From: Ceratodon purpureus
Taxonomy: Eukaryota > Streptophyta > Bryopsida > Pseudoditrichales > Ditrichaceae
Direction: 5' to 3'
Length of the DNA: 64,000 bases
Assembly (NCBI GenBank): GCA_014871385.1
Contig: CM026426.1
Coordinates: forward strand, 17,546,183-17,610,182
The notes under the pieces were generated by a model. The model was not told the DNA's origin and ran no database searches. It was given only the letters and a program-made list of their open reading frames with translations. Shown here in pieces: positions 3,041-59,005 of the stretch; position 1 is the stretch's first letter, and every line of letters begins with the position of its first letter. The position numbers and the translations under genes are program-made.

Positions 3041-3046
3041 TTTGAA

Positions 3047-3782
3047 GGGGAAGCACAATAAAGTGGACCAAAAAAGTGCTTATCTTTTCACCAATTTCAG
3101 CCCCTTCCGTAAACACTAGAGAAAGTGGGATCTACGTTATGTCGATGCATGATTAAGTTTAGGATACGAATAGTAGACTTAATGGACTTCAACTTCCCAA
3201 AGTTGCGGAAGAAGACATTGAGTTTACCATGGAAAACGGAGACGTCGAACTCGGATAAAGTGAACTGACTCATTCGGAAAAGTGAACATAACTGTTTAGG
3301 GTTTTCTCCAAAATCACTTTTAATTTGGGGGCCCCTCCGTATGTTTAAGAGGTATTCTAAAATAGTCAATTCAGATACTCATTGATTGATTTAGGGTTCC
3401 AAAAGTATCGCAAGGATGCTTTTTAAGAAGGTCTTTTCCGCGATACTTTTTGTCACTTTTTTTTCACTGAATGTTGTTTTTTAAATTGAAAAAAACATCA
3501 TCTTAAGACAATAGAGGGCCCCAAATGAAGAAATTAAGACTTTGGAAAAGTTTGTTTTCATGATTTTGAACTAGTGGTCAAATTTAGTTTCAATTGAGGA
3601 TGTTCTGTTTATGAAGATGTGTGTAAGATACCGTATTACACCTTAGAAAGTGACTAAAATGCTCAAAAACTACACCAAAATGCTCAAAATCGGCTTTGAG
3701 CCTTCAAAAACAGCACACTTCATATTCACTTGTTAGTGGTCACATTTTGCACTTTGTGGTCCACTTTATTGTGCTCTCCCCC
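3047..3782. mobile_element. MITE-like element, copy A (about 736 bp)
   Basis: The ends are inverted repeats: left GGGGAAGCACAATAAAGTGG, right reverse complement GGGGGAGAGCACAATAAAG. It is flanked by a short imperfect duplication (TTTGAA left, TTTGAG right). The body matches a second copy at 50911-51649 over its whole length, including the CAATTCAxATACTCATT segment. It encodes nothing obvious. The superfamily is unknown; the short target duplication and G-rich terminus do not fit hAT. It sits just upstream of the gene at 3890 and probably displaced that gene's promoter. Confidence 0.8.
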
Positions 3783-3889
3783 TTTGAGTATCACTTTCGG
3801 GTTCATCGGTGCTTTGTATTATTGCATAGTCCTGTGGCCATACTCATCTGCCCAGTTCGTGGGTTCGGTATCGAAAATTCCACACTGAT

Positions 3890-4531
3890 TATGGGGGAAT
3901 TAGGAGCGACGAGGACTTGGAAGGGGAAGTATGGAGGCGGTTGTTGTGATCATGGGTGCGTTGTTTTTAGCAACTGGGAAGAACCAGGTTTACCCGTTTC
4001 GAGAGGGGCTTCCAAAAGGCGACGCGGTGAGCTCCAGCATATTCGAGACGCCCCCCGCACGTTGACGGAGCTGATGTAGTGGCTCGGAAGCGTGTCGGAG
4101 TTTGAAGTTGAATATGGACTAGTGTGCCCTAACATTGTACCGGTTTGGGATTTGGCTGAGCCGTCTTGGAAGGGGACGTGGATCCAGGAGGCCTTACTCT
4201 CTTTTTTAGCAGCTGCAAATGCGTGTGGCGTGATGCATCCCCCTCTTGATGTTCGAGTCTTAGAGCACACTAACGCAAATCGAAGTCTTGGAGAGCCATC
4301 GGTGGCTGATGCAGATGTTCCAAGAGGTATACAGTCTTTTGGAATCTTGAGTGATTCAGATCCGCCTTTGGATGGAGTGTATTTAGTACCCAACTTAGTG
4401 CCGTTGATTGTATTGTCCGATTCCAGCTTAAACTCGGCATCTTGTGATGCGGATTCGAAGATCGAGTTGGACAACATGGCCGAGTCGATCAATGTCAATG
4501 ATGATGCGTCGAGCCCTTGTATGGAAGGTTA
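3890..4531 (+). pseudogene. Lineage-specific gene, paralogue of the 8352-8868 gene
   Basis: From the ATG at 3890 the frame runs to 4531 (TAG at 4529-4531) with one in-frame TAG at 4077-4079. Middle segments match the reverse-strand gene at 8352-8868 in the same order: EEPxLP, then HLRDAP/HIRDAP, then LLQWL (here LM-stop-WL), then W-x-G-x-W, then ANAxxVMHPP. Where the paralogue has CAG (Gln), this copy has TAG. The C-terminal half is Ser/Asp-rich. The family is not recognised. The MITE ends 107 bp upstream, so the original promoter is likely lost. It is either a recent pseudogene or two short proteins. Confidence 0.55.
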
Positions 4532-4857
4532 GCTACATTAACTTTAAACCAACAATTGTCCTTAGTTATTTCTTACCACTAATTCTGATACTTGCTTCGT
4601 GGTTCTGACGTTCTCAAGTTGCGTTACCGTTCTATTGACATCCGATTCAAAATGCAGAGGACGTCACGATCACTAATGCACCTGGACAACTTTCCAATCC
4701 TGCATTACTCTAGATGCCAAACAGCTAGCGTTGTAGGATTATTCATTTATATGGTCATTTTTCGGCCTGAATATTTGCTGTGTTCTGTATTGGACCGACG
4801 TCGTCCGAGGTTATTTGAATCAGCTTTAGCATTCACTATGGTCATCCGATACAGCAC

Positions 4858-4873
4858 CCGGCGCTGGCGCCAT
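4858..4873. repeat. Palindromic intergenic motif, copy 2
   Basis: CCGGCGCTGGCGCCAT, about 330 bp after the end of the gene at 3890-4531 and about 1.6 kb before the next gene end. Confidence 0.7.
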
Positions 4874-4899
4874 CTATGTCTTTGGCAATGCGTCTGATG

Positions 4900-6460
4900 T
4901 ATTCTGAGTTGTATGAATGAGAAGCTGATTCGGATGACATACGGTTTTCACATGTTTGCCGTCTACAATCTTTTCGTTGTTTTTCTGAAAATTAATATGA
5001 TATGATTTCACCTTGTAATCCAGCGCCTTCGGATTGTGACCTGCTAATGACGGTCAATTACCAAAGCTTCTTTTTACTGCTATATTAGATTTGCAACGAA
5101 GAATGCAACAATAAATATGTTGACGATCTTCCTTTTGCCACCGGCAAGAAAGTTATTGCAATTCATTGCCATCCTATGAAATCACCACTAAATTCAAATT
5201 TTTACGAATTTTGGCTAAGTTACGGCGAGGTGAATCTGCATAGAAATTTAATAGAAACACTCGCTGGAAGTAGCCTTGGTGATTGCACTATTACATGGTT
5301 TGATACTTTATTGGATTTTTAGTAGTGGATACTTTGGGTGATTGCATTATTAGGTCGTTAGAGAATAATATTTTAGTATGAGACGTGCTGGTAATGATGC
5401 AATCGTGGCATTTTGCACGGACATGCATCAGAATTCAGTACAAGAAATAACATGCAGTCATGTATGCAATGTATATTTTTACTGGCATTGTTTCAAAACC
5501 TTGTCGACCAACACAAGGAACCTGAAGGAATTATAAGAATTACTTGGACATATGTTTATTTTTCTGGTTGAATGGGAACAATACTCTTCCAGTGCAGTTA
5601 GAAATTGTATGATCCTGTTGAGTGTTCGTAATACTCACTCACCAGACATAGATGGTTCTCGATGGTTGATAAAAGCTAGCTTTTCTCGTTGAGCACATTG
5701 ATATCATGTTTGTAAGCTTTTTGATATTGACGAGAAATTGATTTTCAATCACTTGAGATTCTGCGATCGTCATACGTATACAAGGATAATATTCACGAAC
5801 CACAGATATCCTAGCTAACAGAACATCATGTGAACTGCCTACTTTTGTTGAATAGAGCCGAGCTAGCAGTCAGAATCGTTTCGGCTAAACGTCTCGGAAA
5901 TTGTGTATATCATAAAACTATTCACAATTGCCGGCAATGACTAAGAATTGCATACGCGCATTTGGTGAATTCTGATTGCAGAGCAGTACCTTTGTTGGGT
6001 CGATGATTAGCTTTCTTTGAGTTACAGTTATTCTAGTCTCTCGGCCGAAGCAGATTAACGTCAAAGGAACGTATATCACAGTACAAGGATGGTAAACCAG
6101 TGTTCAGTAGCCGTTGTCGAATATTGACTTGCGCGTGATTCGTTTCAAACTGATAAATTAAATGTGTATGTGCTTGCAACCACGTCACTAAGAGAAAGGC
6201 AAGATATAGTGAAATGGGTACAGAAGCCTCGTAATTATGGTCAGGATGAGAGAATAGGAGATTAGTATCAATGGATAGATTCCGTTCCCTTTCGTGAGCT
6301 GATTCAACCATTTAGACAGTGGAAATAGTCGCTGTGTGTTTACTCCATATGCCAGAATAAACATTGATATTAAAAATTCACTTAACATGTCCGGTCTTTC
6401 CTTATCAACCGCTCTAAATTGCTGACAATAAAATTGCACTACTAAGCTGGAGTCATATAT
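4900..6460. other. Gene-less spacer
   Basis: Roughly 1.5 kb with only short overlapping frames of no sensible composition and no repeat structure I could see. It may hold the 3' untranslated region of the reverse-strand gene that ends at 6463. Confidence 0.4.
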
Positions 6461-7444: not shown

Positions 7445-8350
7445 TATGCTATTTCTTTGCAAAATAGCGGTATGTAAATGTCAGTGGCACAAAAGCGGTC
7501 GATAACATCGCCAGTGGGACACAATTGTTCACCTAAATCTCTTTGAGTCGCTTGACGTCGTATAGTTGGTCTGGCTTGCCATCTTGTACCTCGTAGAATT
7601 AACTTGCTTCTAAGTAACCCATGCGAGAAGTCGCATTGCAAAGTTGATCAATAAATTGACACCCTTATCTTGATACTCTTTTTATTTATCCATGATCAAT
7701 CATAAAATCCACATAACTCGTCACAGATGCAGCCTAGGCCACCCTGAATCACTTATTCTATCCCAGGAATCACCCATTCTATCCGTTATGCTTACAGTCA
7801 TTACTGTCATAAATCGAAGCAAAATCAGAGTCTCAATGTACGACCAATCCGCATGACTATCGAGTACATACCGAGTTTGTCGAGCAAATCTTCAAGTTGA
7901 AACTTAGACTCAATGTGCAGTGCAATACGTGAATGTCGTACCGATAGGTGAGTATTGTTTTCGACCAATAGTTTCAAATGTTTTTCTGCCTATAAAATTC
8001 ACTGGAATAAATTGATGTGACACTGAATATACGCTAGCAATCGATCTATAATGTCTATTGAAGGGAGTGCTGAAGCACGGTCGCATTTTGGATCATACTC
8101 TGGTTTAGCCCTATAAGCTATTCTTCACTGATGAGCATCTATATATAACATATAAAAGGGGGTTCCATATCACAGAACATAGTTTGGCGATCTTGTTTAT
8201 AAACTATAGAAACTCTTATCTCTCGAATGTAAAATAGAGACAGCTGGGCTAAAAAATGGATATATAACGTTTTCCAAAATAAGAGATACTGCAGTAGCTG
8301 AACATTTTCATCATTGATTGCAACTATTGAGAAATTCAGCGGTTGTAACT
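7445..8350. other. Gene-less spacer
   Basis: About 900 bp without a supported gene. The sequence is moderately AT-rich and no repeat is visible. Confidence 0.4.
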
Positions 8351-8351
8351 G

Positions 8352-8868
8352 TCATTGGCATGTGACTCCCATGTTTAGTCCTCTCAGATCAATTCCAGGT
8401 GAAGATTGAGCTGATGTCAAGTCAAGTCCGTGTTGTCCGTCGAATGGGAACAGCAAGTAGTGGATCCCGGTAACGTCTGTACCCACGCGGTCGGTAAAAT
8501 CTAGGCGGGTGCATGACTTCAGATGCATTGGCCACGGCTTGAAAGGCAAACAGAGTCCTAGTGGTCCAAACCCCTGACCACATCGGAGAAGCTAAAGACC
8601 TTACTGAACTATAATCTGGAGATCTGAGTCCCGTTGCTTCTTCGAATTCGTTAAGATTTGCGAGCCACTGCAACAAGTCGTCGACGTTTGTCGGAGCATC
8701 CCTCAGGTGCTAGAATTCGCCATCTCTTCGAGTAGCAGCTCCATTCCATATTGGTAAATCCGGCTCTTCCTAATCAATGATACCGCCGCAGCCAATGCCA
8801 AGAAACTCCAATTGCTCTCTAGTAATAGCCAATGAAAGCTTCCTTTTTACGCTCCTGAGTTGCGACAT
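8352..8868 (-). pseudogene. Lineage-specific gene, paralogue of the 3890-4531 gene
   Basis: A TATA box on the reverse strand (TATAAATAT, 8931-8939) lies 63 bp upstream of the ATG at 8868. The frame MSQLRSVKRKLSLAI then EEPDLPIWN, LRDAP, LLQWL, and W-x-G-x-W followed by ANASEVMHPP parallels the gene at 3890. In-frame stops occur after GGIID and before HLRDAP, so this copy is broken near its start while its promoter looks fine. The N-terminus is basic. Its function is unknown. The paired decay of both copies suggests relaxed selection. Confidence 0.5.
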
Positions 8869-10610: not shown

Positions 10611-13220
10611 CCCCCCTTTTTTAAAATACAAATGATAAAAACATATAATGCTACATCTTCCGACCACATATTAAACTGAACCTGTTAATTTCTTTCACCA
10701 ATTAAAATCAGAACAGCAGTTAATGTTAACATGAACTAAAATACTTCATGGTAATCAAAGCATCTAAATTCTTCAACGAGTCATTATTCCGTACGCTCCA
10801 CCGAAGTTAATGTATGTGTCATTTATTCGAATCATTCTTTCTGTTGTTTCTATCGTACGCATTTCATGCTGTCTACCATCGCACTCCAGAAGTTCCTTGC
10901 AGAAATCGAACTCATCTAAACCTGTTTCAGAAATTGTAATCTTAATAGTTCTCCGTCTTCTTATTCTCCGCTTTGAATTTTTGTTTTTTTAAATACATAA
11001 ATACTTCTATTATACTTTCATTAAACGGCTTCATATTCTCAATTTAATTCGAGTTACCATCTCTTTATGTACTTTTGACGTTCCTCCCTCTATACAATTT
11101 CCACTTTCGAATATGGTTTTCATTTACTTCTTCTTTATTTTCCTCTATGTTTATTCCCCCCTAGTTTATGCCCTTTTTTTAACGTCTAATTCGTCTAATC
11201 TACCACTCCAACCCTCAAAGCTCCATAAATGTCACTGTTGAATTTCTTCCTTTCATATCGTTTCGAACGTTCGTATTTCGATTTATTTCCTCCATGACCC
11301 ATGTTAAAGTATATTTTACTAATTCGACCACTATTCCACCATTTTACTAATTCTACCCTACTGCTTTAGTTTTGAATTATATTCTACTAGATGTACCCTA
11401 CTGCTTTAGTTTTTATTGAGTACTGTACCCCTCTTTCATATATACGTTTTGAACTCTCCATGTATCACTACATCATGGCCGACTTCTATTTCTTCTAATA
11501 ATTATAATTTCGATACTTTCCCTCTCAAACTATTTTTTTTTCGTCTATTATTTCGATGGTTCACTCATTTGTTTACTTATGAATATACTTCTACTTCACA
11601 GTCTCCCCAAGTGTATCGATACGTTATTTCTTAATATTACACCCGTCGTCGTTATAGTTCTAATATTCATATCCGTCCTCAAACCTCTTATTCTTTGTGT
11701 TGTTCATTAATTTAATTAATTACTATTCCGAAACAATACCACCCTACCAAACATCTTTCATCAGTATTTTTAGTATTCCAATAATATATATATATATTTC
11801 TAAAATTATGTCCCGTCAATATACGTTTTCGTGTAATAATTTTATTTCCGTACTTGTAGCTCCAAGTATTTCACGTCGTGACTTTTTAATTTTTCCTTGG
11901 TACAGTATAGTCTATGTGTCTCTATGAATTATCGTGTTTGTTAAATTCTCTCATTGTGTCATTAGTAAGTGATTACTTTTGTACGTATATACTATACATT
12001 GTACAAGTTAGAATCCAATTCCATATTTATATTTACGTTAAAGTGTATATGAATAAACATATATTCGTATAGTATAAAATGTAAATGTCTTACCTAATTT
12101 ATTTATTTTATTTCATATAAGTTACAACTCAATTCTGGGCGTGGGAAACTAGAATTGTTTATAAAAACAATGATTTCAATTTTAGTCGTTCACAAATTGG
12201 CATTATTCAGTGACGATTGAATGTTTTGTGTTTTTGTTTTATTTTTTACTATTATCCCTTCCTCATCTCATAATGTGAGCTAGTGATTTTTTTTTTAATG
12301 TTAACAGAGTACTAGGATATGGGAGTGTGTAAAATAAAAGACATAAAAGTGCAAGGAGAGTTTTTATATTTCATATAACTCTAAACTAGGCATGAGAAAT
12401 TAGAATTGGACCATTTGTTATGAAAACAATGATTTGAGTTTTATTCCTCCCATGAATTCCATAATCCCAAGAGAATTGAGTGTTTTTTTTTTGTTTTTTC
12501 AATTTATTATTATCTCCAGTTTCTCTCATAATCTAAACTACTATTTATGTTTTTATTTTTGATTTTATCAAAATACTAAAGAACGGAAGTATGTAAAATT
12601 AAAGAAATAAAACTGGGGTAAATCATTCCATAAAAACTTAGAATCAAAGAATCTATATAAATATTTTCATTGTGTACCACTATTCGAGAAGAAATTGGAT
12701 CTATATATCTAAGAGATTTATGAAACCGTAAACCGGTAAAATATAAATGCAAATCTCTTAACCATTTAAACGTAAGTTGCACCGCATGAAAAACCAAGTG
12801 TGTACATGAATTTATGCGTTGAATTACTTCTAATGCATTCTCTCCGCGATGTTCCTCTTATCATCTCGTTGTTGACATTTACTCTTTTGATTCGTTAGTA
12901 TAAAATGTTAATTCATTACCGTATGCTAAAACATGAGTAACTTCGTTTCTTTAAATGAGAATTGGTAAAAACTGTTTTAGTATACCCACAATGTTTACGG
13001 TTCTTTCCATTCAATAGGATATATATTCTTCTTCATAAACGTGTTCACATTATTTGTAGATCCTAGGGGGTTATCCACCCCCAAAGAACCAAAATATCAC
13101 ATAGTTCATTGGATCCCAATTTCAAACGTCGACCCCACCTCCCCGATCACAGGATCTTCAGGACATTCCCCACAATATCCGGGATATGTCTGAATTTCCC
13201 ATTTGGAGGAGATATGCAGT

Positions 13221-31338: not shown

Positions 31339-31584
31339 CATGGTTGTTCATAGGACCTCCCTGTCCGAAAGATCGTCCGGTCCGCTTGTCCGTCCGTTAG
31401 AGGTCATGTCCGGTCCATAAGAGAATATTCAAGCATATTCGAGCATATTCGAGCATATTTGAGAAAAAAATTGGAATATTCATAAAATATGTACGATTTT
31501 CACCCCGGACCGACCGGTCCGTCCGTCCGTCCGTCCGTCCATGTCCGGAAATTTTGCCCATGTCCGTCCGTTATGACAACCCTG
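31339..31584. mobile_element. hAT miniature element (MITE), 246 bp
   Basis: A perfect 8-bp duplication GACCTAGT (31331-31338 and 31585-31592) surrounds ends CATGGTTGTTCAT and ATGACAACCCTG. Its left end parallels that of the 10.9-kb hAT at 47148 (GGACCTCC, GTCCxAAAGA, GTCCGTC). Its right end parallels the other end (ACCGACCGGTCC, then (GTCC)n and GGAAATTTTGCCC). It is an internally deleted derivative of that family. Confidence 0.9.
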
Positions 31585-47037: not shown

Positions 47038-47147
47038 GTGAGTGAACTCACTCTGATTAGAATTGAATACCATCGTCTGGTCGATTGTGTCGGTAATGTA
47101 ACCCACGATTTGCATGTTGAGGATTATGTACCTAGTGCCATGCTAAA
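47038..47147 (+). CDS. Host exon, left part, split by the 10.9-kb hAT element
   Basis: The frame LTLIRIEYHRLVDCVGNV then HDLHVEDYVPSAM reaches the target duplication ATGCTAAA (47140-47147), where ATG is a codon. The same frame resumes at the right copy of the duplication (58062), so this and 58062-58371 were one coding exon before insertion. Confidence 0.55.
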
Positions 47148-47365
47148 CATGGTTGTTCATGGGACCTCCCCGTCCAAAAGACCGTCCAGTCCGCTCCTCC
47201 GTCCATTAAGGGTCAGGGGAGGTCCGTTTGACCGAGACTTACGGTTGACCGTCCAAATGGTGAAATGGAAGTTACCTTGGCCACCTAGGATGCCACGCGT
47301 CTGATATGTCACCAAATATTCCACATATAGAGTTGACACGGAGGATGTCGTGGCTAAGAGGTAGG

Positions 47366-47562
47366 GCGCCAACGCCTTGAGGGAGGGGGGCGCGAGCGCC
47401 TTTAAGGGGGCCGCGAGCGGCTGAGAGGGAGGCGCGAGCGTCTGGGGAAGGGGTGCGCGAGCGAGGGGGCGGAGGGGGGAGGGGGGGGGGGGGCGGAGGG
47501 GGGGAGGGGGGGGGGGGGGCGGGTGGAGGCGCAAGCGCCTGCGAAAGGGGGGCGCGAGCGGG
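47366..47562. repeat. G-rich subterminal array (left outer)
   Basis: Variants of GGCGCGAGCGxCTxxxGGGG repeated about eight times with long G runs on the + strand, matching in inverted sense the C-rich array at 57786-57880. It is G-quadruplex prone. Confidence 0.7.
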
Positions 47563-47830
47563 GACCAAAAAAAAGGCATTGAAGGAAATTAAGACATGAG
47601 TGAAGTTTTCATAGTGACATAAATGAGAGAAATTTCAATTCATGTCAAAACAAAAATACATCCAATAGCCTTAGCTAATTTTTTATGGACATTGACTAAG
47701 ATTAACATATAAGTATCTACGTAAAAAATATATATATTATATATTTTTTTAATTTTTAATATTTTTATTGGAGTTATATATATTATACTTTGTCTATATA
47801 ACTTCTATATCTAATATGCTGAAAGATGTA

Positions 47831-50800
47831 TTACTTTTTTTTATTTTTTATGGCGGTGCGCCGTGGCGGATTCGTTCGAGTACCGGGCATCCTCAATGGT
47901 ACTCTTACAACAATGTCTTCATCATTAGGTGCTTCTACACGACTATCTTCCGATGAATCCGATCCATCTGAGGATTGTGAGCCCTCGTCATCTCCATCTC
48001 CATAATTAATAGGCACATACTCCTCCACTGTGGAATGAATGTTGCGCAATTCGTAGTCAATTGTACCATCCACCACCGTAGTCACAATTCTTTTGACCTT
48101 CCGTCTTTTGGTCTTATCGGTGATCCCGTCCTCATTGATTACGGGTAATCTACGTTTACCTACAGCCACAGTTAAAGACGAGGTAGTCCCAACAGTATAT
48201 ACTGAAAAAAATGGACGAACGTTTGTTGGACCTTTACTGAACCGCTTCACTCCACGACGCATCATAGAAGGTCCGGCCCGCGGACTTGCTCCAGAAGAAG
48301 TGAGTGGAACACTTGTATTCAGTGTTGGAGTACTTGAACCATGCCCAGTAGATCCGCTTCAATGAGGTGGGGGAGGTCTACCCAACCCAGCAAGTACTGC
48401 TCTGATTGAAGGTGTATTCTGAGGCAGCGGTGTCTAAAACAATTGGCCAATAGGAATTTCATCCTCTTGTCCATTTTGAACTCTCTCTGAATGTTCATTT
48501 CTTGGAGGGCTTTCATTCAAACCTCCGGACCTGATTGTTTCTTCAACATTTTCTGCCAGAGCGCCTCGGAGTTGTTCAACTTCTTCTCCTCCCTCAACGT
48601 CTTGTGGAATTGGAATTTGCACTCCACTGTTGTTATCCCCTCCTTCATTGTCATTGTTGGAAACGCTACGAACGAGGTGAATGTCATCATTATGGCCACC
48701 ATCGTTGCTTTGATGCTGAGTCATTTCGACTTCAAATTCATCGTCAATATCATCGTCTGCCCAATCGTATGCGACCACGCCTCTAGTTCGTATTTCATTG
48801 ACAACGTGGTGAGGCGAAGTAGCTGCCTCTTCATCAAATCCTGCCCAGTCAAAAACTCCATTCGGCTGGTTAACGGGTTCATTGCGTGGCATGTCACCAC
48901 CAGCATTGTCTACGAGTAACTCTGAATACTCATCATCCATACTACCATGATAATAATGAACACCACCATCGTCACCATCGCCTCCATTATCTTCAACTCC
49001 ATCGTTGAATCCTTCATCTCCATCATTATCACAGACTTCTTCGTCGTGCATGGCTGCAACTTCTTCATCCAAGTCTTTGGAGAACGGTTGGTTGTCGTAC
49101 CAAATAACAGGATCTGCTCCACGTCGTTCTCGAAGGAGCTTACTGTTGGTGTAAAGGTACACCAAGTCCTCTGCCTTCTTCACGCCCAATTGGTTGCGAA
49201 TCTTATTGTGAACAAAGGAATACATGCTCCAATTTCGCTCACATAATGATGCCGAGCATGTTAACGAAAGGATGCGCTTCGCTATCAAGGGCAACGCATC
49301 GCCCCCAACTCGCTGCCACCATTGATGAGGTAGCATCTTAGTCTGTCGAATGTTTGGGGCCTCCAAAGGGCTGAATGGACCGGTGCGTTCCTCAAATTGT
49401 GTTAGCTCGAACATCACAGCATCATGGTCCACTCTAAGGCACTTACTTAAATGAATTAGCACTTGCAGGAGTGCACGCTTTGCAGCATCGTTAATCAATA
49501 GCTCGTGGCTCTCCGGGAAAATATAGGGATTCAACATGGCACCTGCGTAGTGGAGATCTGTCAACATCATCTTCCATCTCCTCATAAAATGTTTCTCAAA
49601 GCGCCCTGCTATAGCGGGGTCTAGGAAAAAAGGGTCACCCCGTAGACAAAACACATGCTTCTTCAGATTATTCATGGCCAACCACGCCCTCCCCATTGCC
49701 GGTGTTTTTCCATCAAAGGTCATCAAAGTCACAACAGCCCGCTTCATAACATGCACAAGATTCTCACAACGTAACCAAAACGTCTCATCGAGAATGGTAC
49801 TCCATACTAGACCTGCTAAGGCATGAGCACGATGCCCGTTTTGGCGATTGAATAAAGTACCCACGTATTCGTCCCATTTCTGATGGACTACCACCTGAAT
49901 TAGTGCCTCCCTCAGCTCAAGCAATCGAACAATCATCAAGTACTGGCATCCAAATCTTGTCTCTGCTGGTATCGACAAAGACAACTTTGGGCTGAATTGG
50001 CGAAACAAAGCCATGGTCACATGACGGCAACGTATAAAATTTAGTATGCGTTTTGCCAAGATAATCAGCTCTTTGAAGGTTGCTTCCTTCTCCCAATCTT
50101 CCAGTAAGAGGTCCATGATGTGAGCTGCACATCCTTGCTTGTAAATGTGTGGGTAAGCTTCTACCACCTGGTCCATGGCTCCCAACATCGCACTAGCATT
50201 GTCAGAGCAAATCTTTACCACATTCTGCGCTCCAACTTCTTTGATGTACTCTTTCAATTTCCCAGCTATGTATGCTTTTGATTTCTTGTTCCCCGTTGTA
50301 TCAATGGAACCAAGGAATATATCTCTTGCTAGACACACAAGCATGACATTCATCAACGGCCGACGAACAACGTTGTCCCATCCATCCGAGCAAATAGTTG
50401 CCCACTACAAGCTAATACACTGCTTGGTTTTCTCCTCTATTTTCGTCTTGACAAGCTGCTTTGTTGGCTGGATGTGCTTGGTTTGCATTGCGTTGTACGC
50501 TGGTGGACGGTAGACAAAACCCGCTTTCGAGGTTGCCTCCACTACTACGATGAAAGTTGGATGTCTAACCACATTGAAAGGCACATTTGCTTCGTAAAAG
50601 TAGGCCGCCCATTTCTCATCCAAATCATTGCGCTTTCCAATCTGATAGGCCTCAGTAAAACTTTGTTGCCGCATAGATCTTGGTGTACAGGAATCGCCTC
50701 TGCTTAGAAGCGGAGTTGACTGAGACGGTTCAACTTAAGAATTCCTCTCCTCTTGGACCTACTCCGCTCCCTGAGGCACTTCTGTAGATTGCTCAGCAGG

Positions 50801-51849
50801 CATAGACTGGCTAGAACATGGTGAGAAGCTTGCCTTGCCATCACCAGCGTTAGTGCCATAGATCTTCGCATGTGTCATTCTTTTCGGTATTACATTACCA
50901 CAATTGGCAAGGGGGGAAGCACAATAAAGTGGACCACAAAAGTGGACGTCTCATTGTCAATTTCAGCCCTTTTGCAAAAATTGTACAAAAGTGATGGAAA
51001 GATGTAGTTGAAATCAAATTTTTTTGCAAATATAGATTCTTGACTTGTTTTTGTACAACTTGAAAACGTTTCAAGCAAAGTGGACACTATAAAGTTATTG
51101 TATGAAGGCTTCAAATCCAAGCAAAGTGAATGCAGTCATTTGGAAAAGTGGCTATAAAAGAATCAAAACCTATCTAAAAATCACTTTTGATGAAGTGGTG
51201 CCCTCTGTATGTTTAAGAGGTATTCTACAATAGTCAATTCATATACTCATTAATTAGTTTGGGGTTCCTAAAGTACCGCTGGGATGTTTTTTAGGAAGGT
51301 CACTTCGGCGGTACTTTTTGTTAGTTTTTTTTCACCGAATATTGTTCTTAAATTGGAAATAACATCCTCTAAAGATAATAAAGGGAATTAATTGAAGAAA
51401 TCAAGACTTTGGAAAAGTCCATTTTCATGATTTAGAACTAGTGGTCAAATTTAGTTTCAATTGAGTATGTTCTTTTCATGAACATCCGTGTAAGATACCT
51501 CTTGACACCCTAGAAAGTGACTAAAATGCTCAAAAACTTCACGAAAATGCTCAAAATCAGCTTTGAGCTTTAAAAAACAGCACACTTCATATTCACTTCT
51601 TAGTGATCAGATTTTGCACTTTGTGGTCCACTTTATTGTCCTCTCCCCCGCAAAGCGTCTAAATACGGCGGCAGGGGCCTTGGAACAATGACTCTTGCTT
51701 GAACCTTCACCCCATCCATAGTGCTTCATAGCTCTTTGTCGTTTATAACAAAAAGTCTCATTGCACCACACACATTCAACATGGTCCTTATCAAGGAACT
51801 ACCATCAAGGAGCCCACTCAGACGTCGGTTGACTCTGTTGTCCTGTCAT
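47831..51849 (-). pseudogene. hAT transposase (BED finger, DUF659, dimerisation domain)
   Basis: The ATG at 51849 opens an exon with a BED-type finger (CVWCNETF, H, HCSKAP), split by the MITE at 50911-51649. The DUF659-like region follows: VEATSKAGFVYRPPAYN, WATICSDGWDN, VKICSDNASAMLGAMDQV, GCAAHIMDLLLEDW. The main open part is 50356-48434 (640 residues), with ETRFGCQY and the C-terminal dimerisation block SASLCERNWSMYSFVHNKIR. An acidic tail and a basic end run on to 47831. In-frame stops at about 50408 (TAG) and 48432 (TAG), plus one near 48360 and two in the BED exon, and the MITE, make this copy inactive. Transposase acts in the nucleus on the element's ends. Confidence 0.85.
50911..51649. 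mobile_element. MITE-like element, copy B (739 bp)
   Basis: Same family as 3047-3782: left GGGGGGAAGCACAATAAAG, right reverse complement GGGGGAGAGGACAATAAAG. GCAA is duplicated at the borders. It interrupts the BED-finger exon of the hAT transposase, so it arrived after that element was built. Confidence 0.85.
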
Positions 51850-52059
51850 TCTCCGATCTCTGAAAAAGTTCAATGATCTCTTGTCTGCAAGTGTTAGTAT
51901 GTCACATGTGGAAAAAAAATGGTATGTGTAGACATCAACCACAGGCCAATGTGATGCACATAGTCTCAAGCAAGGAGCCCACAAAGAGTTCCGGGACTAG
52001 AGGCCATGATTTGAAATGAAATTAGGCTTGGCCTAAGTTGGTGGCATTTATACTCGTTA

Positions 52060-52475
52060 GGGGGGGGCGCGAGCTCCTGAGGGGGCGAAAGCTTCTCACA
52101 TGGGGGGGAGAGTATTTGGTAGGGGAGGCGAGAACTTCTAAGTGGGGGTGAGAGATTTTGCGAGTGGGGGCACGAGCTCTTGGAAGGGGGGGGGGGGGGG
52201 GGGCGCGAGCTTGTGCAAGGGGGGGGGGGGGGGGGGGGGGGGGGGGCGACTACTTATGTGGGGGGGGCGAGTGCTTTTGGAAGGGGGACGAGTACTTCTG
52301 AGGGGGGGCGAGTGCTTTTGGAAGGGGGACGAGTACTTCTGAGGGGGGGCGAGTGCTTCTGGGGAAAGGGGGGGCGACTGCTTCTGGGGAAGGGGGGGCG
52401 AGAGCATCAGTGGAGGGGGGGGGGGTGCGAGCTTCTGTAAGGGGGGGCGCGAGCTTCTGAAGGGGCAGTCCCGGT
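52060..52475. repeat. G-rich minisatellite (left inner array)
   Basis: About 16 units of GGGGGGCGAGTGCTTxTGGA-type sequence. Pure G runs reach over 20 bases. Read in the same orientation as the left outer array. It lies 3' of the kinase gene. Confidence 0.75.
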
Positions 52476-52663
52476 GAATGGGCCATACAGTTTTTTTAAT
52501 TTTTTTTTAATTTTTTTTTTCAATCCATTACAAAACGAGCAATATCATTTCATGTTCCACCCGAGCACATATGCGCCAACAAAAGGATTTATTAACATAA
52601 TAGAAACGTGCAAACAAGGCCACATAGGCAATCAAAATGTTCCAAACGTAAATCACTATGGAA

Positions 52664-54241
52664 CTACAATGTGTATCTAAAACAACCATTGGAAGCTTGG
52701 AAGTTGTAAGGGGGACTCATCAAATCATCCACAACTTTTGCAAGTGAAAGCCTCTTTGCAGGATCTTTGTTAACCAAGCCATCCAACTTTGATGAGAATG
52801 CAATCATTGACATTGGATCCTTGAAGAGTTCTGGGCATTCTTTGTCGTTCCATATCTTCTTTGCCAAATGGCCTACCGAAAATGCATCAGATTACGTTGT
52901 ACATGGATGCATCCTCTTCATGCACTCCAAATTGCATTCCTCGTCATCTTTGTCGCCATATAAAAAAAACAACTCCGGTGCAACTTCTACCCTCCTCTCC
53001 TTTAATCGTGGTAGATCATCGGGGTTCCTCAAACCATAAGGGGAGGCCTTCTTCTCAACGACTCTGCTTGCCATACCCCAATTGCACACACCAATATATA
53101 CTTTATCCTTATCATGAGGTGGAAAGTGGAGTAGAATGTTGGATTGCGTTAAGTCGTTGTGGAGGATTTCAGCCTTATGGACTATGTCCATAACGTAGAT
53201 GAGACTCCATGCCAACATTCCTCGGTTCTTTCAATAGGCAACAATTCTCTGGCAGTCTTCCATAGGCATTTTGGGCAGCTTCAAAATTTCTTTGTAACGT
53301 GCTGCCTCTGACGCATTCTTATTTAATTTGAGGAAGTTGCGCAAGCAATCTCCGTTCCACCACAGGGTATAAGCTTCCATGGTCTTGGAATGACAAGCCC
53401 AAAATTTTATCACACCCGGATGCTCTACCAGGCAAGCCATGGCCTCAATCGCTCGTTCTTTTTGCTTATCCTCTTCAGTTTTAGCCTTGGACATTTTTCC
53501 GGCAAATTCGATGTGAATTGGAATACGCTTCATATTGGCTATTCGCACTTTTTGCACTTTGCCATACCCCCCCTCGGCATTGAAGCCAGATAATGGCACA
53601 ACTTTGGCTGTAGTCAAAATCCAGATTAGTGAACCATACATGTGTGCTTCCAATGCTGAGTTCAAAGCTTGTTCATTCCAAGGCATAATCTTCGTTTTTC
53701 CCTTGGAAAATCTCTGACATGCTTTCTTAACCGTTGTCAGTTTCTGAATAAACACTTTGTCTTGGTTGCTCCATTCTTCGCCTTGTGGTTTCTTGACATG
53801 TGATTCGAACACATGAATGACATTTGTCGTAGCACTGGTCACTTGTTGTGCCAACCACTTCGGGCTGTGATAATACTTCGTGCAATCCATGTAGAACTCT
53901 GACCCTTGCAATGCGCTCCAAAATTCCCTTTCCAAATCACGTTGGAGCTTGTAGATACCATTCTCTCCTTGATCGAGGTACATTGTCTTCAACATTCGTA
54001 TGCTACAAGCCTTGTAGTACTCGACGGTCACCTTCCTGATGAAATGCGTATACTCCAATGGTGGATAACCCTCATCCTTCTCATGCCCCCCAATCTTCTT
54101 CTTCTTCTTCTCCTTCAAGCTAGATGAAGGAGTAGAACCAGTATGCGATTCAGCTCTTACACAACTCATAGGGTCCACCGCATCTGGAGCATCCAAATCT
54201 TCATAGATAGGCCGCTTGTCGGAGCCTTGCCTAGAAGACAT
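52664..54241 (-). CDS. Transposon-borne protein kinase (possible pseudokinase)
   Basis: From the ATG at 54241. A Lys-rich N-terminal extension (KEKKKKKIGG) and a helical region (residues 60-210) precede the kinase fold: glycine loop EGGYGKV (223-229), the ATP-anchoring Lys in FAGKM (249), EHPGVIKFW, hinge LWWNGDCLRNF. Next comes catalytic loop ILHNDLTQSNILL with Asp and Asn kept, then VCNWGMAS where DFG/DWG is expected (Asp to Asn), then VAPEL and a C-lobe ending DPAKRLSLAKVVDDL. One TGA interrupts the frame near 53234, between IVAY and the catalytic half, and another stop occurs near 52897. The metal-binding Asp change would impair catalysis. It lies wholly inside the hAT and flanked by opposed G/C arrays, so it is likely captured and then moved with the element. 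Confidence 0.7.
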
Positions 54242-54279
54242 CGCAAAGTAAATCCCTGAAAAAAAAATCAACAATTCCC

Positions 54280-54472
54280 CCCCCCCCCCCCCCCCCCCCA
54301 AATGAAGACTTTCCACGTAAGCAGTTCCAAGCAAGGCGTGTTTTCACACGTCAGGACAAGGAGCCGCTGTAGAAAGGAGTGTGGGGGGCGAGAGCGTCTT
54401 CCCATTTTATATAGTGCCCCCTCTGAACCTGCTCGCGCCCCCCCTAACCCGCTCGCGCCTAACCCGCTCGCG

Positions 54473-54511
<39 letters not shown>
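54280..54511. repeat. C-rich minisatellite (right inner array)
   Basis: A C run at 54280-54299, then CCCGCTCGCGCC units and a C run over 30 bases. Inverted relative to the array at 52060-52475, with the kinase gene exactly between. Confidence 0.75.
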
Positions 54512-54513
<2 letters not shown>

Positions 54514-54529
54514 CCCTCTGACATTTCCT

Positions 54530-55600
54530 TTTTTATTTTTATTTTTATTTTTTGTTTTCTTCTTAAAGAAGTGGAATCTCTGCACCATTTCCTTAAAGAA
54601 AAAAAAAGAAAAAATTAAAAAATTAAAAAATTAGAAAAACTCCGGAGATTTATATATGCACAATCTCTCTTCCAACCCTCTATCATCCTTTGCTATTGAC
54701 TTCAATCTATCCCCTTTATCTTCCAAATCAATAGCCTTGAGCCCTTCATAACGGTTCTTTATATTTTTAATTATATGTTAAAGCATTGTTTGTTTCGTAT
54801 GTATAATAAATTATATAGATTGATTTATTTATCTTTAATCCAACCTTCTTCCACTCTATGCTATTGATTTTATTGTATTCCCTTTATCTCTTTCAATGTT
54901 GATGTTTTTTATTTATTTTTTTATTGTCAACATTTTATTTTTAATTCTTCATTAGATCATTATTCTGTTAAAGCATAATTCAGTTTCTAATCATTCTGAG
55001 ATTTATTTATTTTTATACTTTTTCCATCTCATGTTATTCATCCCTTTTTATCTCCAATCTCTTATAATAGTCATGATTGTTTTTATCCAATATGATTGTT
55101 TCATCCCCAAATTTTTTTGAGCATTATTCCTTATTTAATTATTTGTTTATATTTTTGTCTTTCAACCTTCTTCAACGCTACTCCATTGATTTTATATGTT
55201 TTTTATTTTCTTGATGCAAATGGTGATTTTATTCGACTGCAAAATAAAACAAAGACACCGCTATGCAACTGAGTAGACACGCTTGTTAATTCTATAATTC
55301 TGATGTCTCTTCCAATATTAAGGTTCATATAGCTCTTCAAGATCATTTTTTATTTTTTATTTTTAAATTTTTTGCTGTATTGTTGGATACTTGGGTGGGG
55401 TCTACAGTATTTTGACAACGCCACGTACCATCTTTCAGCCTTATTTTGTACGCTCATCCAGGAATTTGGGCCCTAAATTACCTCACGGTGGCTTATTGCT
55501 GAATACTTGGGTGGGCCACAAAGTATTGTTAGAATACCGTAATCAACCACATAGGAGATTTGTAAAACCATTTGGGCGAAGTTTTGAGTAGTTGGTGTGT
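54530..55600. other. AT-rich spacer inside the hAT element
   Basis: About 1 kb, T-rich, between the two divergent cargo genes. A direct repeat GATACTTGGGTGGG/AATACTTGGGTGGG occurs at about 55385 and 55502. No gene. Confidence 0.5.
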
Positions 55601-55634
55601 TTTTTAACACACTCAACTTTCCCAGTACACCACC

Positions 55635-57707
55635 ATGGAGGGAAACCCAGCTCTGGCGGCGGCAGTGCCACTCACCAAGGCGAAAAGAAAGCGAATTAAA
55701 GATTGGGAACAGAAGCGTGGTGGTAAGAAGATGAAGAAGCGGCTTCATGTGTTGAACAACCCTGCAAAGTTGGCATTTAGAGGTTGGCAAGATGAGCTAG
55801 AACCGTAAAAATATTCCACATGCGAGGAATTCATTGAGTGGTGCCACATCACAAAACTATTTCCGCACGAGCGCCACAGAAATAACAGGACCTCAGACAA
55901 GGCTAACCTCTACTTCTGCTTCAATGCGGAGTTTGTTGAACGTTGTATACAAGTTTACCAGCATCTATACAAGCAATGATCTGTAGAACGCAATGAAGCA
56001 CCATTGTTCATTTGTAGAATGGTGTATGTTGAGTTGGTACTTCACAAAGTGGTGGATTGGTGCACCATCAAAACCACGAGGAGTGTTACGACGCCAAGAG
56101 TGATTGACATTCCCAAACAAAGGGTATACCCTGATGGTGGCTTGGGGAGAAATATGAAGGTAAAACCACAAGAGAGGGAGCCTGAGACAGAAGAATCAGA
56201 ACCAGATTCTGATTCCGATGGTCATCGTGAAGAAAGGGTGCCAGGTAGAGTTGCAGCACCAGCAAATATGGCTGTAGTGCCTCCAATCAACCATCCAGCG
56301 GACGTCGTAGAACCTCACGACGATGCGAACATCATCTTCGTGGAAAATGATCCGAATACGGCAGCTAATTTGGAGGTGGTCGGAACTGAACCTACGATGG
56401 TTCTTGGCATGCCGGTTGTAGTTAGAAATGACCAGTCTAACCAAACCGAGGAGGTCGGGGAGTTGCAATTACAGGTTATAGAAAAGGATGGCTTCATTGC
56501 AGAGTTACAAGAGACCATCCGAAAACTACGATTGGAATCAGCAGCAAAAGATGCACTAATATCAGATTTGCGCAATCAATTGCAAGAACGAGAAAGACCT
56601 CAGTCTTCTCAAGCCAATGATATACTTGTAGTTGAAGATCCAATGTAAGTGGATGAATCTTACATCAACAACACGGTTGATGTTGCAACGGCTTGTGTGT
56701 TGGAGAATATTTCCACACCAGCAAAACAACGACAGGTTGGAATGATATTGCCTCCACTAGGCCCATACGCGCGACCCTATGTGGACATTGATGGACCATA
56801 AGTCAAGATTCCTTGTCATTTCCACCCAATGCTCAAACGGAAGAAGTAGAGACATTGAGGAGAGCCAATGATGAATTGCGGCTCCTTGTTTCGAGGTTTG
56901 CTAAATCATACTATGAGTGGAAAGTGGCAACCATTCTCAGCGTTGATCGCGGTCGCCAGATCGCAACAGAGTTCAAGAAGATTGACGAAGAGTACTTGCA
57001 ACACAACAGACGAAGGGATTTTGGCCTCACTTCATGGACTAATGCAGATGATATGTTTCCATCCACTCTGCCAATGCAAGAATCGGATTCTAAACTCATA
57101 GATTGGGCAAAGTTGGATTTTGATGTGGAGAACGCAACTTCGTGCCATGATCTTCAAATGAAGGAAGGAGTTACAGGCAGAAAGCTTTGGCCAAATCCTC
57201 GACCATGGGTGTTGAATGGTTCTGAAACATGTATGGTGTGTCTTAATCCATTTGGTCCGGACGGGGGGATGGGCACTTGGATCATGTCCACACATGTTCC
57301 ATCCAATGTGTTTAATTAACGTATTTTTGGTTAGGAGATTTTGTCCGGTGTGCAAATCTCCGTTCCATGAACGCTTATACGAGGTTTTTGGACTCACTCC
57401 ATACATGCTACCAAGCCATGAGAGAAATCTCGAAAACACCCCGGGTGAATGTTACCGCAATATGTGGGGGGAAGATTTGATTTGGAGTTGGCGGGCCCAG
57501 ACTCACTCGGTCTTCAAGAGCAATGTAAGTGACGAGTTGAGGTGGGAGGATGACCACAAGGCGATTGTGAGGGTGTGCAAGAAGATAATTGGATCAGCGA
57601 AGGAGGACCAAGGGAAACAAAAAAAATTCTATCAGACTTTGAATGGATACTGGGATGCGAAGCATAAGAAATTCCAACTTGGTACGCACCCACAAGGCCT
57701 CATATGA
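55635..57707 (+). pseudogene. Transposon-borne coiled-coil RING-finger protein
   Basis: The ATG in good context (CACCATGG, 55635) opens a very basic N-terminus (TKAKRKRIKDWEQKRGGKK). Then an acidic Asp/Ser stretch (EPDSDSDG); a leucine-rich coiled coil (LQLQVIEKDGFIAELQETIR, about 56461-56600); a second helical part (57000); and a split RING: ETCMVCLNPFGPDGG (about 57222) then HMFHPMCLINV and RRFCPVCKSPF (57275-57364). The spacing C-x2-C ... H ... C-x2-C suggests an E3 ubiquitin-ligase-type RING. It has about four in-frame stops (near 55807, 55976, 56646, 56800) and frame changes near 56810 and 57285. It is broken here but clearly once one protein. It is transcribed divergently from the kinase gene. 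Confidence 0.6.
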
Positions 57708-57785
57708 AACAAGGAAGGGAACTTGATTACAGACAATGAAGGTCACGCCACTCTGACCGCCCGAGAGGCAATCCAAATGTCTACT

Positions 57786-57880
57786 TGAACTCACTCGCGC
57801 CCCCTCTTGAACCCGCTCGCGCCCCCCCCCTGTACCTGCTAGCGCCCCCCCCCCCCCCCCTAAACACGCTAGCGCCCCTT
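57786..57880. repeat. C-rich subterminal array (right outer)
   Basis: CTCGCGCCCCCxxxTxxACCxG units, the inverted partner of the left outer array. Confidence 0.7.
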
Positions 57881-58061
57881 TTGCATATGTGGAATTCCTC
57901 GTCAGCGTTGGTTGTCCATATATAGGTAAGTTGTAAAAAATTAAAACCAACCTAGTAATTTTCCTTCTCCCCTCAATGTCCGATTTTCACCGTGGACCGA
58001 CCGGTCCGTCCGTCCGTCCGTCCGTGTCCGGAAATTTTGCCCGTCCGTTATGACAACCCTG

Positions 58062-59005
58062 ATGCTAAATGCTAAGTACAAAGATGGAATTCAATGCTGC
58101 TTTTGTTCAGTATTTTCACGTCTGCAGAGGCGACAACATCACTTTTTCCAGGAGGCTAGTTGAGGGCTTCTTGCACTAGTGCGCTTGGCTGCACAAGATG
58201 ACGAAGATAAGGACAAAGAGGAAGAGGAAGAGTTTGTTCATGCAATGGACGGGCAGAACAAAGTACCACTGAAGCAAGTTCGTGCAGCCATTGTGGACGA
58301 CATTGTGCAGGTTGCCCTGGCTGTCAGAGACACATGCGACACTGTTGATGCAAGATTCTCATTCAAAGAAGGTAGATCATGGCAAGAAGGAATCATCTCT
58401 TATTTTCATGTTTAATCGTTGTTCAGGCATTACAAGTGCTTTTGGTGGTTTCATCCTATCAACATTGTACTATTGTAATGTTCACTAACATTATGTATCT
58501 TGCATCTTTTGTGGAATCAATACATTTCACCTTTTGCCCTATAGTTTGCAATTAGTTATAATCAATTATCTCGTAACTCTTTAGCTTAAGACTGTCAACA
58601 TTGTCAATTCATTGCCAGTCTTACATATGCTTAAGATGTGGAAGAGCTGCAGGTTGACGAACACGGCAAAGATTTCCAGCAAAGACTAGGAATGTTTGCT
58701 CTTCAGATACTGGTTTGTACTCCTTGATCTCACTTTTAAAAGCCATATTTAGCACTGTTCTAAATTTATAATCTTGGTCACACCTGATACACATGTTTGT
58801 CAGTGTTGGTACTTTTATTATTTTGCTCTTTGTCTAAGTGTTGATTGATTGCAGGGTATCGCGGGGGAAAGAATTGCACACTCAGGATGGGAAGTCCCAC
58901 TGGCAGTAATCGAGCTTGTTGAGCTGCTGCCGTCCTGTGGTGTTTCTATGTTCTTGCTGCTCATAGGCGATCGGATTCAAGCTCTTATTGAAATGACAGC
59001 CGACG
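58062..59005 (+). CDS. Host gene exons right of the insertion (ALF4/glomulin-like?)
   Basis: Exon a, 58062-58371, continues the frame broken at 47147. It has one in-frame TGA near 58161, then LAAQDDEDKDKEEEEEFVHAM, and ends in donor GGTAGA. Exon b, 58636-58712, and exon c, 58855-59005, are phase-matched (G plus AT; then phase 0). Exon b reads FQQRLGMFALQIL; exon c reads VELLPSCGVSMFLLLIGD. The ALQIL...LPxCGxSxxxLxxG arrangement recalls ALF4/glomulin, regulators that bind the RBX1 subunit of cullin ligases. That is a guess from pattern. Exon phase agreement shows a real, if damaged, gene. Later exons were not identified confidently. Confidence 0.45.

What the first reader, a model, noticed from the sequence alone, without database searches (positions are those of the whole stretch)
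47148..58061. A 10.9-kb hAT element carrying a kinase and a RING-finger gene
Seen: hAT ends with a perfect 8-bp duplication enclose a hAT transposase plus two divergent, unrelated genes, a protein-kinase domain (GGYGKV, AGK, HNDLTQSN, APE) and a coiled-coil RING protein. Known: plant hATs normally encode only transposase; host-gene capture is common in Pack-MULEs, Helitrons and CACTAs but unusual for hATs. Inference: a cargo-bearing hAT lineage in which kinase and ubiquitin-ligase-type proteins may modify host silencing or transposase activity.
Basis: partly seen in the sequence, partly recalled or inferred. Interest (0 to 1): 0.88.

Follow-up and report, generated by a model that had tools for sequence, protein, structure and literature searches.

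The report
Three-gene hAT transposon in a moss
A moss genome holds many near-identical copies of a jumping gene that carries, besides the enzyme that moves it, genes for a protein kinase and a ubiquitin-ligase-like protein, which suggests the element brings its own regulators; the copy first noticed is an old, broken member.

Summary
47148-58061 is a hAT element with a perfect 8-bp duplication (ATGCTAAA), enclosing a hAT transposase, a protein-kinase gene and a RING gene. In this copy all three genes are broken (stops, frame changes, and a nested 739-bp insert in the transposase).

The host is the moss Ceratodon purpureus; the window lies on its V sex chromosome. The genome holds a younger family with the same layout. 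Of 14 copies fetched (of 82 listed kinase hits), 13 have both ends and all three genes; duplications are perfect in 9, 7 of 8 in 2, absent in 2; the 14th breaks off in the transposase. Scans with 34-base words (up to 2 mismatches) give 215 RING, 205 transposase and 121 kinase places. Among listed exact words, 68 of 96 RING words have a transposase word downstream on the same strand (1 of 96 with strand flipped); 49 of the 68 have the kinase word between.

The ORFs are uninterrupted in many copies; pN/pS is 0.14-0.34, and all three genes show similar dS against the window copy. So kinase and RING look like old, co-inherited, selected parts of a 12-13.5-kb element. Whether they act on silencing or on the transposase is untested.

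The parts
47140..47147 (.). left target-site duplication ATGCTAAA
47148..47165 (+). left terminal repeat CATGGTTGTTCATGGGAC
47366..47566 (.). G-rich array built on GGGGCGCGAGCG-like units, beyond the transposase 3' end (limits approximate)
   Evidence: counterpart blocks in young copy C3a
47833..51849 (-). hAT transposase gene, broken: stops at 51807, 51801, 50761, 50737, 50407, 48436, 48361; DUF659 and hAT dimerisation domain
50911..51649 (.). nested 739-bp inverted-repeat element inside the transposase, with GCAA (TTGC on the minus strand) duplicated; absent from the 12 young elements examined
   Evidence: exact limits read
52056..52470 (.). G-rich array between transposase and kinase genes (limits approximate)
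52666..54241 (-). protein kinase gene, broken: stops at 53233 and 52894, CNWG in place of CDWG
54278..54518 (.). C-rich stretch and array upstream of the kinase start (limits approximate)
54651..55200 (.). degenerate repeats; about 54691-54920 aligns with the 210-bp tandem array that separates RING and kinase starts in young copies
55635..57789 (+). coiled-coil RING-H2 gene, broken: stops at 55806, 55977, 56646, 56799, 57705 and two frame changes (near 56800 and in the G run near 57260); 3' end missing relative to young copies
57788..57880 (.). C-rich array beyond the RING 3' end (limits approximate)
58044..58061 (-). right terminal repeat, reverse complement CAGGGTTGTCATAACGGA
58062..58069 (.). 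right target-site duplication ATGCTAAA
31339..31584 (+). 246-bp non-autonomous relative with the same kind of ends (85% over 68 bp and 86% over 96 bp) and its own perfect 8-bp duplication GACCTAGT

Best explanation
This is an old, dead copy of a family of large autonomous hAT transposons in Ceratodon purpureus that encodes three proteins from uninterrupted ORFs: a DUF659-type hAT transposase (about 1,095 aa), a 526-aa protein kinase with a helical N-terminal domain, and a 793-aa coiled-coil RING-H2 protein. Shown: the three genes lie together between terminal repeats with 8-bp duplications in independent insertions, were already together in the common ancestor of the window copy and the young family, and have pN/pS below 1. 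Inferred: the transposase binds the CGGAC-rich subterminal repeats and moves the element; the kinase and the RING protein are expressed from a shared divergent region (a variable 210-bp tandem array) and help the element persist, most likely by phosphorylating and ubiquitinating either a host silencing factor or the transposase itself.
For: Window anatomy. 82 scored kinase places at 97-99% to P0001 on 13 chromosomes, 80 of 82 without a stop inside. 14 of the 82 fetched: 13 with both ends; duplications 9 perfect, 2 at 7 of 8, 2 none; the 14th stops matching inside the transposase. ORFs: kinase open in 14 of 14, RING 801-802 codons in 12 of 14, transposase 1,109-1,112 codons in 7 of 14. Words with up to 2 mismatches: 215 RING, 205 transposase, 121 kinase, reversed control 0 each. 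Among listed exact words, 68 of 96 RING words have transposase downstream on the same strand against 1 of 96 flipped, 49 of 68 with the kinase word between. Of 43 listed kinases in that part, 43 have a transposase word downstream and 37 also a RING word upstream. 59 of 77 exact left ends have the RING word 2.54-2.79 kb inside. pN/pS 0.315, 0.341, 0.142 for kinase, RING, transposase. dS to the window copy: kinase 0.199, RING 0.148-0.214, transposase 0.174-0.237. Kinase catalytic positions conserved across 21 aligned sequences, RING zinc ligands across 19. Kinase model mean pLDDT 80.9, protein-kinase folds in Foldseek.
Against: No expression, transposition or biochemical data were available. The kinase copies were picked by protein score, which biases their intactness upward and their pN/pS downward; copies with broken ORFs were left out of each pN/pS (RING 1, transposase 6 of the 13 copies used). 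RING and transposase words outnumber kinase words (215 and 205 against 121), so some members may lack the kinase or carry a diverged one: 19 of 68 RING-transposase pairs have no exact kinase word, though one of them, on C4, has a kinase protein hit with one stop. One of 21 aligned kinase relatives (P0030) reads HNN in place of HND. The RING model is poor (pLDDT 57.7). Two of 13 copies with both ends show no duplication.
Confidence: 0.72

Rival explanations
1. Passenger cargo: two host genes were captured once and amplified as hitchhikers without a function for the element, like histone H3 in fungal hATs.
For: Precedent for hAT transduplication of histone H3 in fungi (PMC6710886, passages). Cargo pN/pS is two to three times that of the transposase. 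ORFs without introns would fit capture of a transcript.
Against: pN/pS of 0.31-0.34, under 1; RING ORF full length in 12 of 14 copies while the transposase is in 7 of 14; relatives run from 96% (RING) or 83% (kinase) down to 40% and less at nearly full length in other sources, so the ORFs have been kept for long; no host donor was seen.
Confidence: 0.17
2. The kinase and RING genes serve host or sex-chromosome functions and the transposon merely spread them.
For: The window lies on the V sex chromosome (C6 length 110524308 equals the contig of KC19_VG232100).
Against: 18 of the 82 listed kinase hits are on C6, 22%, although C6 is 30% of the assembly, so no enrichment there; the 82 hits, 97-99% alike and spread over 13 chromosomes, look like a mobile element, not a host gene family.
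Confidence: 0.05
3. The kinase and RING genes sit in the hAT by later nested insertion of other elements.
For: GC-rich arrays bracket every gene in C3a and could mark old junctions. I did not search the young copies for hidden ends or duplications of another element around the cargo.
Against: The 13 complete copies have the same order and orientation; similar dS of all three genes against the window copy.
Confidence: 0.02
4. A sharper form of the best explanation: the two genes act as one module against host silencing, as VANC does for VANDAL elements.
For: Transposon-encoded anti-silencing proteins exist in plants (PMC12730594 introduction; PMC6446971 passages).
Against: Pfam scans gave no link of either protein to a silencing function, and no methylation data were available.
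Confidence: 0.35

Closest known systems
hAT superfamily DNA transposons (Ac/Tam3 type)
   Same: 8-bp duplications, CA..TG ends, DUF659 and hAT dimerisation domain in the transposase, a short non-autonomous derivative
   Different: about 12-13.5 kb and three genes; a passage in a research paper gives about 5 kb as typical and a range up to 7,144 bp (PMC6710886)
TET/JBP-carrying hAT7, IS3EU and other fungal DNA transposons
   Same: accessory enzyme genes kept inside DNA transposons, with conserved order in some; TET-carrying IS3EU also has an alpha-kinase gene (PMC12730594, introduction, section 4.1 and passages)
   Different: fungal; 7-bp duplications for hAT7; dioxygenase and alpha-kinase, not a Pfam Pkinase-type kinase plus RING
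Histone-H3-carrying hATs of Dothideomycete fungi
   Same: host-type gene amplified by a hAT with 8-bp duplications, about 9.5 kb (PMC6710886, passages)
   Different: single captured gene, in P. fijiensis inactivated by RIP in the copies; here two genes, open in many of the copies read
VANDAL (MULE) elements with VANB/VANC; MuDR with mudrB
   Same: plant DNA transposons with extra genes, some with a shown role for the element (PMC6446971, passages)
   Different: Mutator superfamily; no relation of the proteins was found (Pfam)
Pack-MULE, Helitron and CACTA gene capture
   Same: gene sequences inside a transposon
   Different: those often carry fragments and are often non-autonomous (recalled); here full-length ORFs with pN/pS below 1 beside the transposase

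Membership tests
hAT superfamily | 8-bp target-site duplication | tested here: met
   window 8 of 8; 246-bp relative 8 of 8; young copies with both ends 9 of 13 perfect, 2 of 13 at 7 of 8, 2 of 13 none
hAT superfamily | short terminal inverted repeats starting CA and ending TG | tested here: met
   CAGGGTTGT at both ends (read inward) in 12 of 12 extracted young elements; CATGGTTGT and CAGGGTTGT in the window copy
hAT superfamily | transposase with hAT dimerisation domain and DUF659 | tested here: met
   PF05699 and PF04937 over cut-off
hAT superfamily | BED zinc finger | tested here: inconclusive
   Cys/His pattern visible near the N terminus, no Pfam zf-BED hit
hAT superfamily | RNase-H-like DDE catalytic triad | not tested
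   motifs CSDGWD, CSDNAS and CERNWS are visible output; their assignment to the triad is recalled only
eukaryotic protein kinase | glycine-rich loop, VAIK-type lysine, HxD aspartate, DFG-type aspartate, APE | tested here: met
   21-row alignment: G224, K249, E266, H361, N362, N368, A421, P422 invariant; D363, D387 and E423 at least 90%; exceptions include N at 387 in the window copy and HNN in P0030; motif HND, so not an RD kinase
RING E3 ligase | RING zinc ligands | tested here: met
   C533, C536, C551, H556, C559, C570 invariant and C573 at least 90% of 19 rows; the remaining ligand, H553, is C in P0054 and P0066; PF13639 over its cut-off in P0051 (just) and P0060, no family in P0066; E3 activity not testable here
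transduplication / Pack-type gene capture | identifiable host donor gene outside the element | tested here: inconclusive
   of 43 listed P0001 kinase hits in the compared part, 43 have a transposase word downstream, so none stands alone; but only 82 of 1423 and 84 of 1345 candidates were scored
VANC-type anti-silencing elements | element-encoded protein that lowers methylation of its family | not testable with these tools
   no expression or methylation data

The most novel reading that the evidence does not exclude
A plant hAT lineage that carries its own two-enzyme counter-defence module: a phosphorylating kinase and a RING ubiquitin ligase, co-expressed from a divergent tandem-repeat region, that mark a host silencing factor (or the transposase) for change or destruction and so let a 13-kb element spread to a hundred or more places.
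Probability: 0.35. Interest if true: 0.87.

Novelty: new variant of a known kind. Interest (0 to 1): 0.72.

Why it matters
Extra genes on plant DNA transposons are best known from Mutator-like elements (PMC6446971 passages, and recall). This is a hAT with two conserved signalling genes, at high copy number and young, in a moss with assembled sex chromosomes. That makes an old question directly testable: what do transposon accessory proteins do to host silencing? If the kinase and RING act on the host, they point to silencing components of bryophytes.

Tried and rejected
Rejected: cargo as separate nested insertions. Rejected: my first idea that all stops in the window copy are C-to-T changes; the comparison with a young copy shows several that are not. 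Led nowhere: a diverged sister family in the same genome, sought with kinase P0007; the 84 of 1345 candidates scored are at 56-57% and nearly all at places already in the P0001 list. Loci L001-L008 from the first hAT search are 3.2-kb pieces of other hATs: none matches the kinase or RING set at 1e-5, but they are too short to judge. The RING model is too weak for fold matches beyond the RING itself. PDB sequence search only finds generic kinases. NCBIfam and further Pfam matches of five kinase relatives are weak and below cut-off apart from the two general kinase models. I could not tell whether relatives in other sources are genomic or transcript contigs: many contigs are only a little longer than one gene, which fits transcripts but also fits assemblies broken at the GC-rich arrays. 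Paper searches for hATs with kinase or RING cargo: 15 of 31 listed; 0 papers; 3; 10; 0; 6; 5; 12 of 23 listed; judged by titles and abstract starts, none is about such an element in plants. A 2026 review of plant gene capture has 0 whole-word hits for hAT, kinase, moss, bryophyte or RING (PMC13317346). The Ceratodon genome paper is not held and was not among the papers listed (10 of 17) or 22 (10 of 23); so a description there cannot be excluded.
Full report
WHAT IS IN THE WINDOW. The element runs from 47148 to 58061 (10,914 bp) between CATGGTTGTTCATGGG and the reverse complement of CAGGGTTGTCATAACGG, with ATGCTAAA on both sides, 8 of 8 letters. The minus strand holds the transposase (47833-51849) and the kinase (52666-54241); the plus strand holds the RING gene (55635 to about 57789). 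Pfam gives DUF659 and the hAT dimerisation domain for the transposase, the protein-kinase domain for the kinase, and weak RING matches for the broken RING ORF. A second, 246-bp element at 31339-31584 has the same kind of ends (85% over 68 bp, 86% over 96 bp) and its own perfect duplication GACCTAGT.

THIS COPY IS DEAD. The transposase frame has seven stops and a 739-bp inverted-repeat insert at 50911-51649 with a duplicated GCAA (minus strand TTGC); the 12 young elements read there have the uninterrupted site. A relative of that insert lies at about 3045-3790 of the window. The kinase has two stops and has lost the aspartate of its DFG-like motif; the RING gene has stops at 55806, 55977, 56646, 56799 and 57705, two frame changes, and lacks the 3' end seen in young copies.

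WHERE IT IS. The window is G000:C6:17546183-17610182 in a 362.5-Mb assembly. C6 is 110,524,308 bp. Transposase relative P0079 is named KC19_VG232100 of Ceratodon purpureus and comes from a contig of exactly that length, so the window is on the V sex chromosome of that moss. A review passage gives U and V each as over 100 Mb, about 30% of a 360-Mb genome (PMC8000587, passages).

THE YOUNG FAMILY. A protein search with the window kinase, X at its stops, found 50 relatives, the best 526 aa and 83% identical. That protein (P0001) matches 82 scored places in G000 at 97-99%, on 13 chromosomes, 80 of 82 with no stop inside; 1,423 candidates were seen at first look and only 82 scored. I fetched 14 of these 82 with flanks (two of the flanks hold runs of N outside the element). 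In 13 of 14 both ends are present: left CAGGGTTGTCTATTCGGACGGA (12 exact, one with one change, C1a), right CATGAACAACCCTG. The 8 bases outside match perfectly in 9 of the 13, at 7 of 8 in 2 (C4a, C12a) and not in 2 (C1a, C13a); the 14th (C6a) has the left end and matches the family only up to inside the transposase. The 12 elements whose left end is exact and right end present measure 11,960-13,504 bp. Order, read with the kinase forward: left end, RING (reverse), 210-bp tandem array, kinase, GC-rich array, transposase, right end. The coding frames are uninterrupted by introns: kinase 526 aa open in 14 of 14; RING 801-802 codons stop to stop in 12 of 14 (461 in C9a, 773 in C6b); transposase 1,109-1,112 codons in 7 of 14.

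GENOME-WIDE CO-OCCURRENCE. The 22-base left end occurs exactly 134 times, reversed control 0. Words of 34 bases, at most two mismatches: RING 215, transposase 205, kinase 121, each with reversed control 0. The tool lists only the first 100 places per search, and every listed row is an exact match, so words with mismatches and C7-C13 are outside the distance counts, which were made on the shared part (C1 to C6:72.49 Mb). There, 68 of 96 RING words have a transposase word 3-14 kb downstream on the same strand, against 1 of 96 with the strand flipped; 68 of 100 transposase words have a RING word upstream. 49 of the 68 have the kinase word between them and 19 do not; of 61 kinase words 49 have both partners. 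The 19 without have a spacing of 3.1-6.2 kb (median 5.7, against 6.6 kb for the 49), so most could hold a diverged kinase; one, on C4, has a kinase protein hit there with one stop. Of 43 listed kinase protein hits in that part, 43 have a transposase word downstream and 37 also a RING word upstream. Of 77 exact left ends in the RING-listed part, 59 have the RING word 2.54-2.79 kb inside. In the part shared with the transposase list, 13 of 74 left ends have none of RING word, listed kinase or transposase word; they may be short derivatives or diverged copies. Of 48 left ends (of 100 listed) without a listed kinase I read five for 1 kb: four follow the full element throughout and one leaves it after about 420 bp.

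AGE AND SELECTION. Among young copies mean pS and pN are 0.0114 and 0.0036 for the kinase (13 copies, pN/pS 0.315), 0.0165 and 0.0056 for RING (12 copies, 0.341), 0.0153 and 0.0022 for the transposase (7 copies, 0.142). Thirteen copies entered (C6a was left out) and those with a broken frame were dropped, 1 for RING and 6 for the transposase; the kinase copies were chosen by protein score. So these are low estimates; RING was not selected for directly. Against young copy C3a the window copy shows dS 0.199 (kinase), 0.148, 0.193 and 0.214 (three RING pieces), 0.237 (64 codons) and 0.174 (1,023 codons; transposase), and dN/dS 0.38-0.59. Similar dS (no formal test made) means the three genes parted from the young family at about the same time, so the cargo was on board in their common ancestor.

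THE PROTEINS. Across 21 aligned kinases (30-84% identity to the window kinase) the glycine loop, AGK lysine, HND, the following asparagine and CDWG are conserved, with N for D in the window copy and HNN in P0030; the asparagine in HND makes it a non-RD kinase. The AlphaFold model of P0001 (mean pLDDT 80.9) has a helical domain at about 52-202 and a kinase fold after it; Foldseek gives 1,772 matches at E 0.001 or better, generic kinases such as CASK, RET and FGFR2 at 14-19% identity, with loose overlays (rmsd above 5 in the rows listed). Pfam gives zf-RING_2 over the cut-off in P0051 (just) and P0060 and nothing in P0066. Of 38 transposase relatives, five carry an organism name: two of Ceratodon and, at 27-29% identity, Ranunculus, Closterium and Brassica.

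OTHER ANATOMY. Both ends carry repeated CGGAC: 9-10 in the first 250 bases and 6-7 in the last 250 of four young copies counted, 8 and 2 in the window copy; such subterminal repeats are usual transposase binding sites in hATs (recalled). In C3a, blocks of a 20-23-bp GC-rich unit (GGGGGCGCGAGCGGGTTCA type) lie at about 230-434, 3444-3541, 5987-6168, 8172-8506 and 12519-12613, that is on both sides of each gene, and a 210-bp unit is repeated nine times at 3954-5823 between the RING and kinase starts. Their role is unknown; the tandem array sits where a shared divergent promoter would be.

COMPARISON. Accessory genes on DNA transposons are known: TET/JBP on fungal hAT7 and others, an alpha-kinase on IS3EU, SET methyltransferases, the VANDAL protein that regulates its own silencing (PMC12730594, passages, introduction and section 4.1); mudrB and vanB/vanC (PMC6446971, passages); histone H3 on fungal hATs (PMC6710886, passages). 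I found no report of a plant hAT with kinase and RING, judged by titles and abstract starts, and the library lacks the Ceratodon genome paper. By the features tested this is a member of the hAT superfamily; as a three-gene hAT with signalling genes it is a new variant.

VERDICT.

Noticed in passing
window 31339-31584: A 246-bp element with the same family of ends and a perfect 8-bp duplication GACCTAGT: a short non-autonomous relative.
   Followed up: partly
window 50911-51649 and about 3045-3790: Two copies of an unrelated inverted-repeat element (about 86% alike over 474 bp) whose ends hold CACAATAAAGTGGACCAC-like sequence; the first interrupts the transposase with a 4-bp duplication.
   Followed up: partly
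copy C3a (L015, L016, L032), element positions 230-434, 3444-3541, 5987-6168, 8172-8506, 12519-12613: GC-rich minisatellite blocks bracket each of the three genes; long G or C runs lie at broadly similar places in the other 11 extracted elements; function unknown.
   Followed up: partly
G000, all chromosomes: RING (215) and transposase (205) words outnumber kinase words (121), so some members may carry a diverged kinase or none.
   Followed up: partly
L052 (C6:94013101-94014100): A left end that follows the family for about 420 bp and then runs into GC-rich arrays, perhaps an internally deleted member.
   Followed up: no
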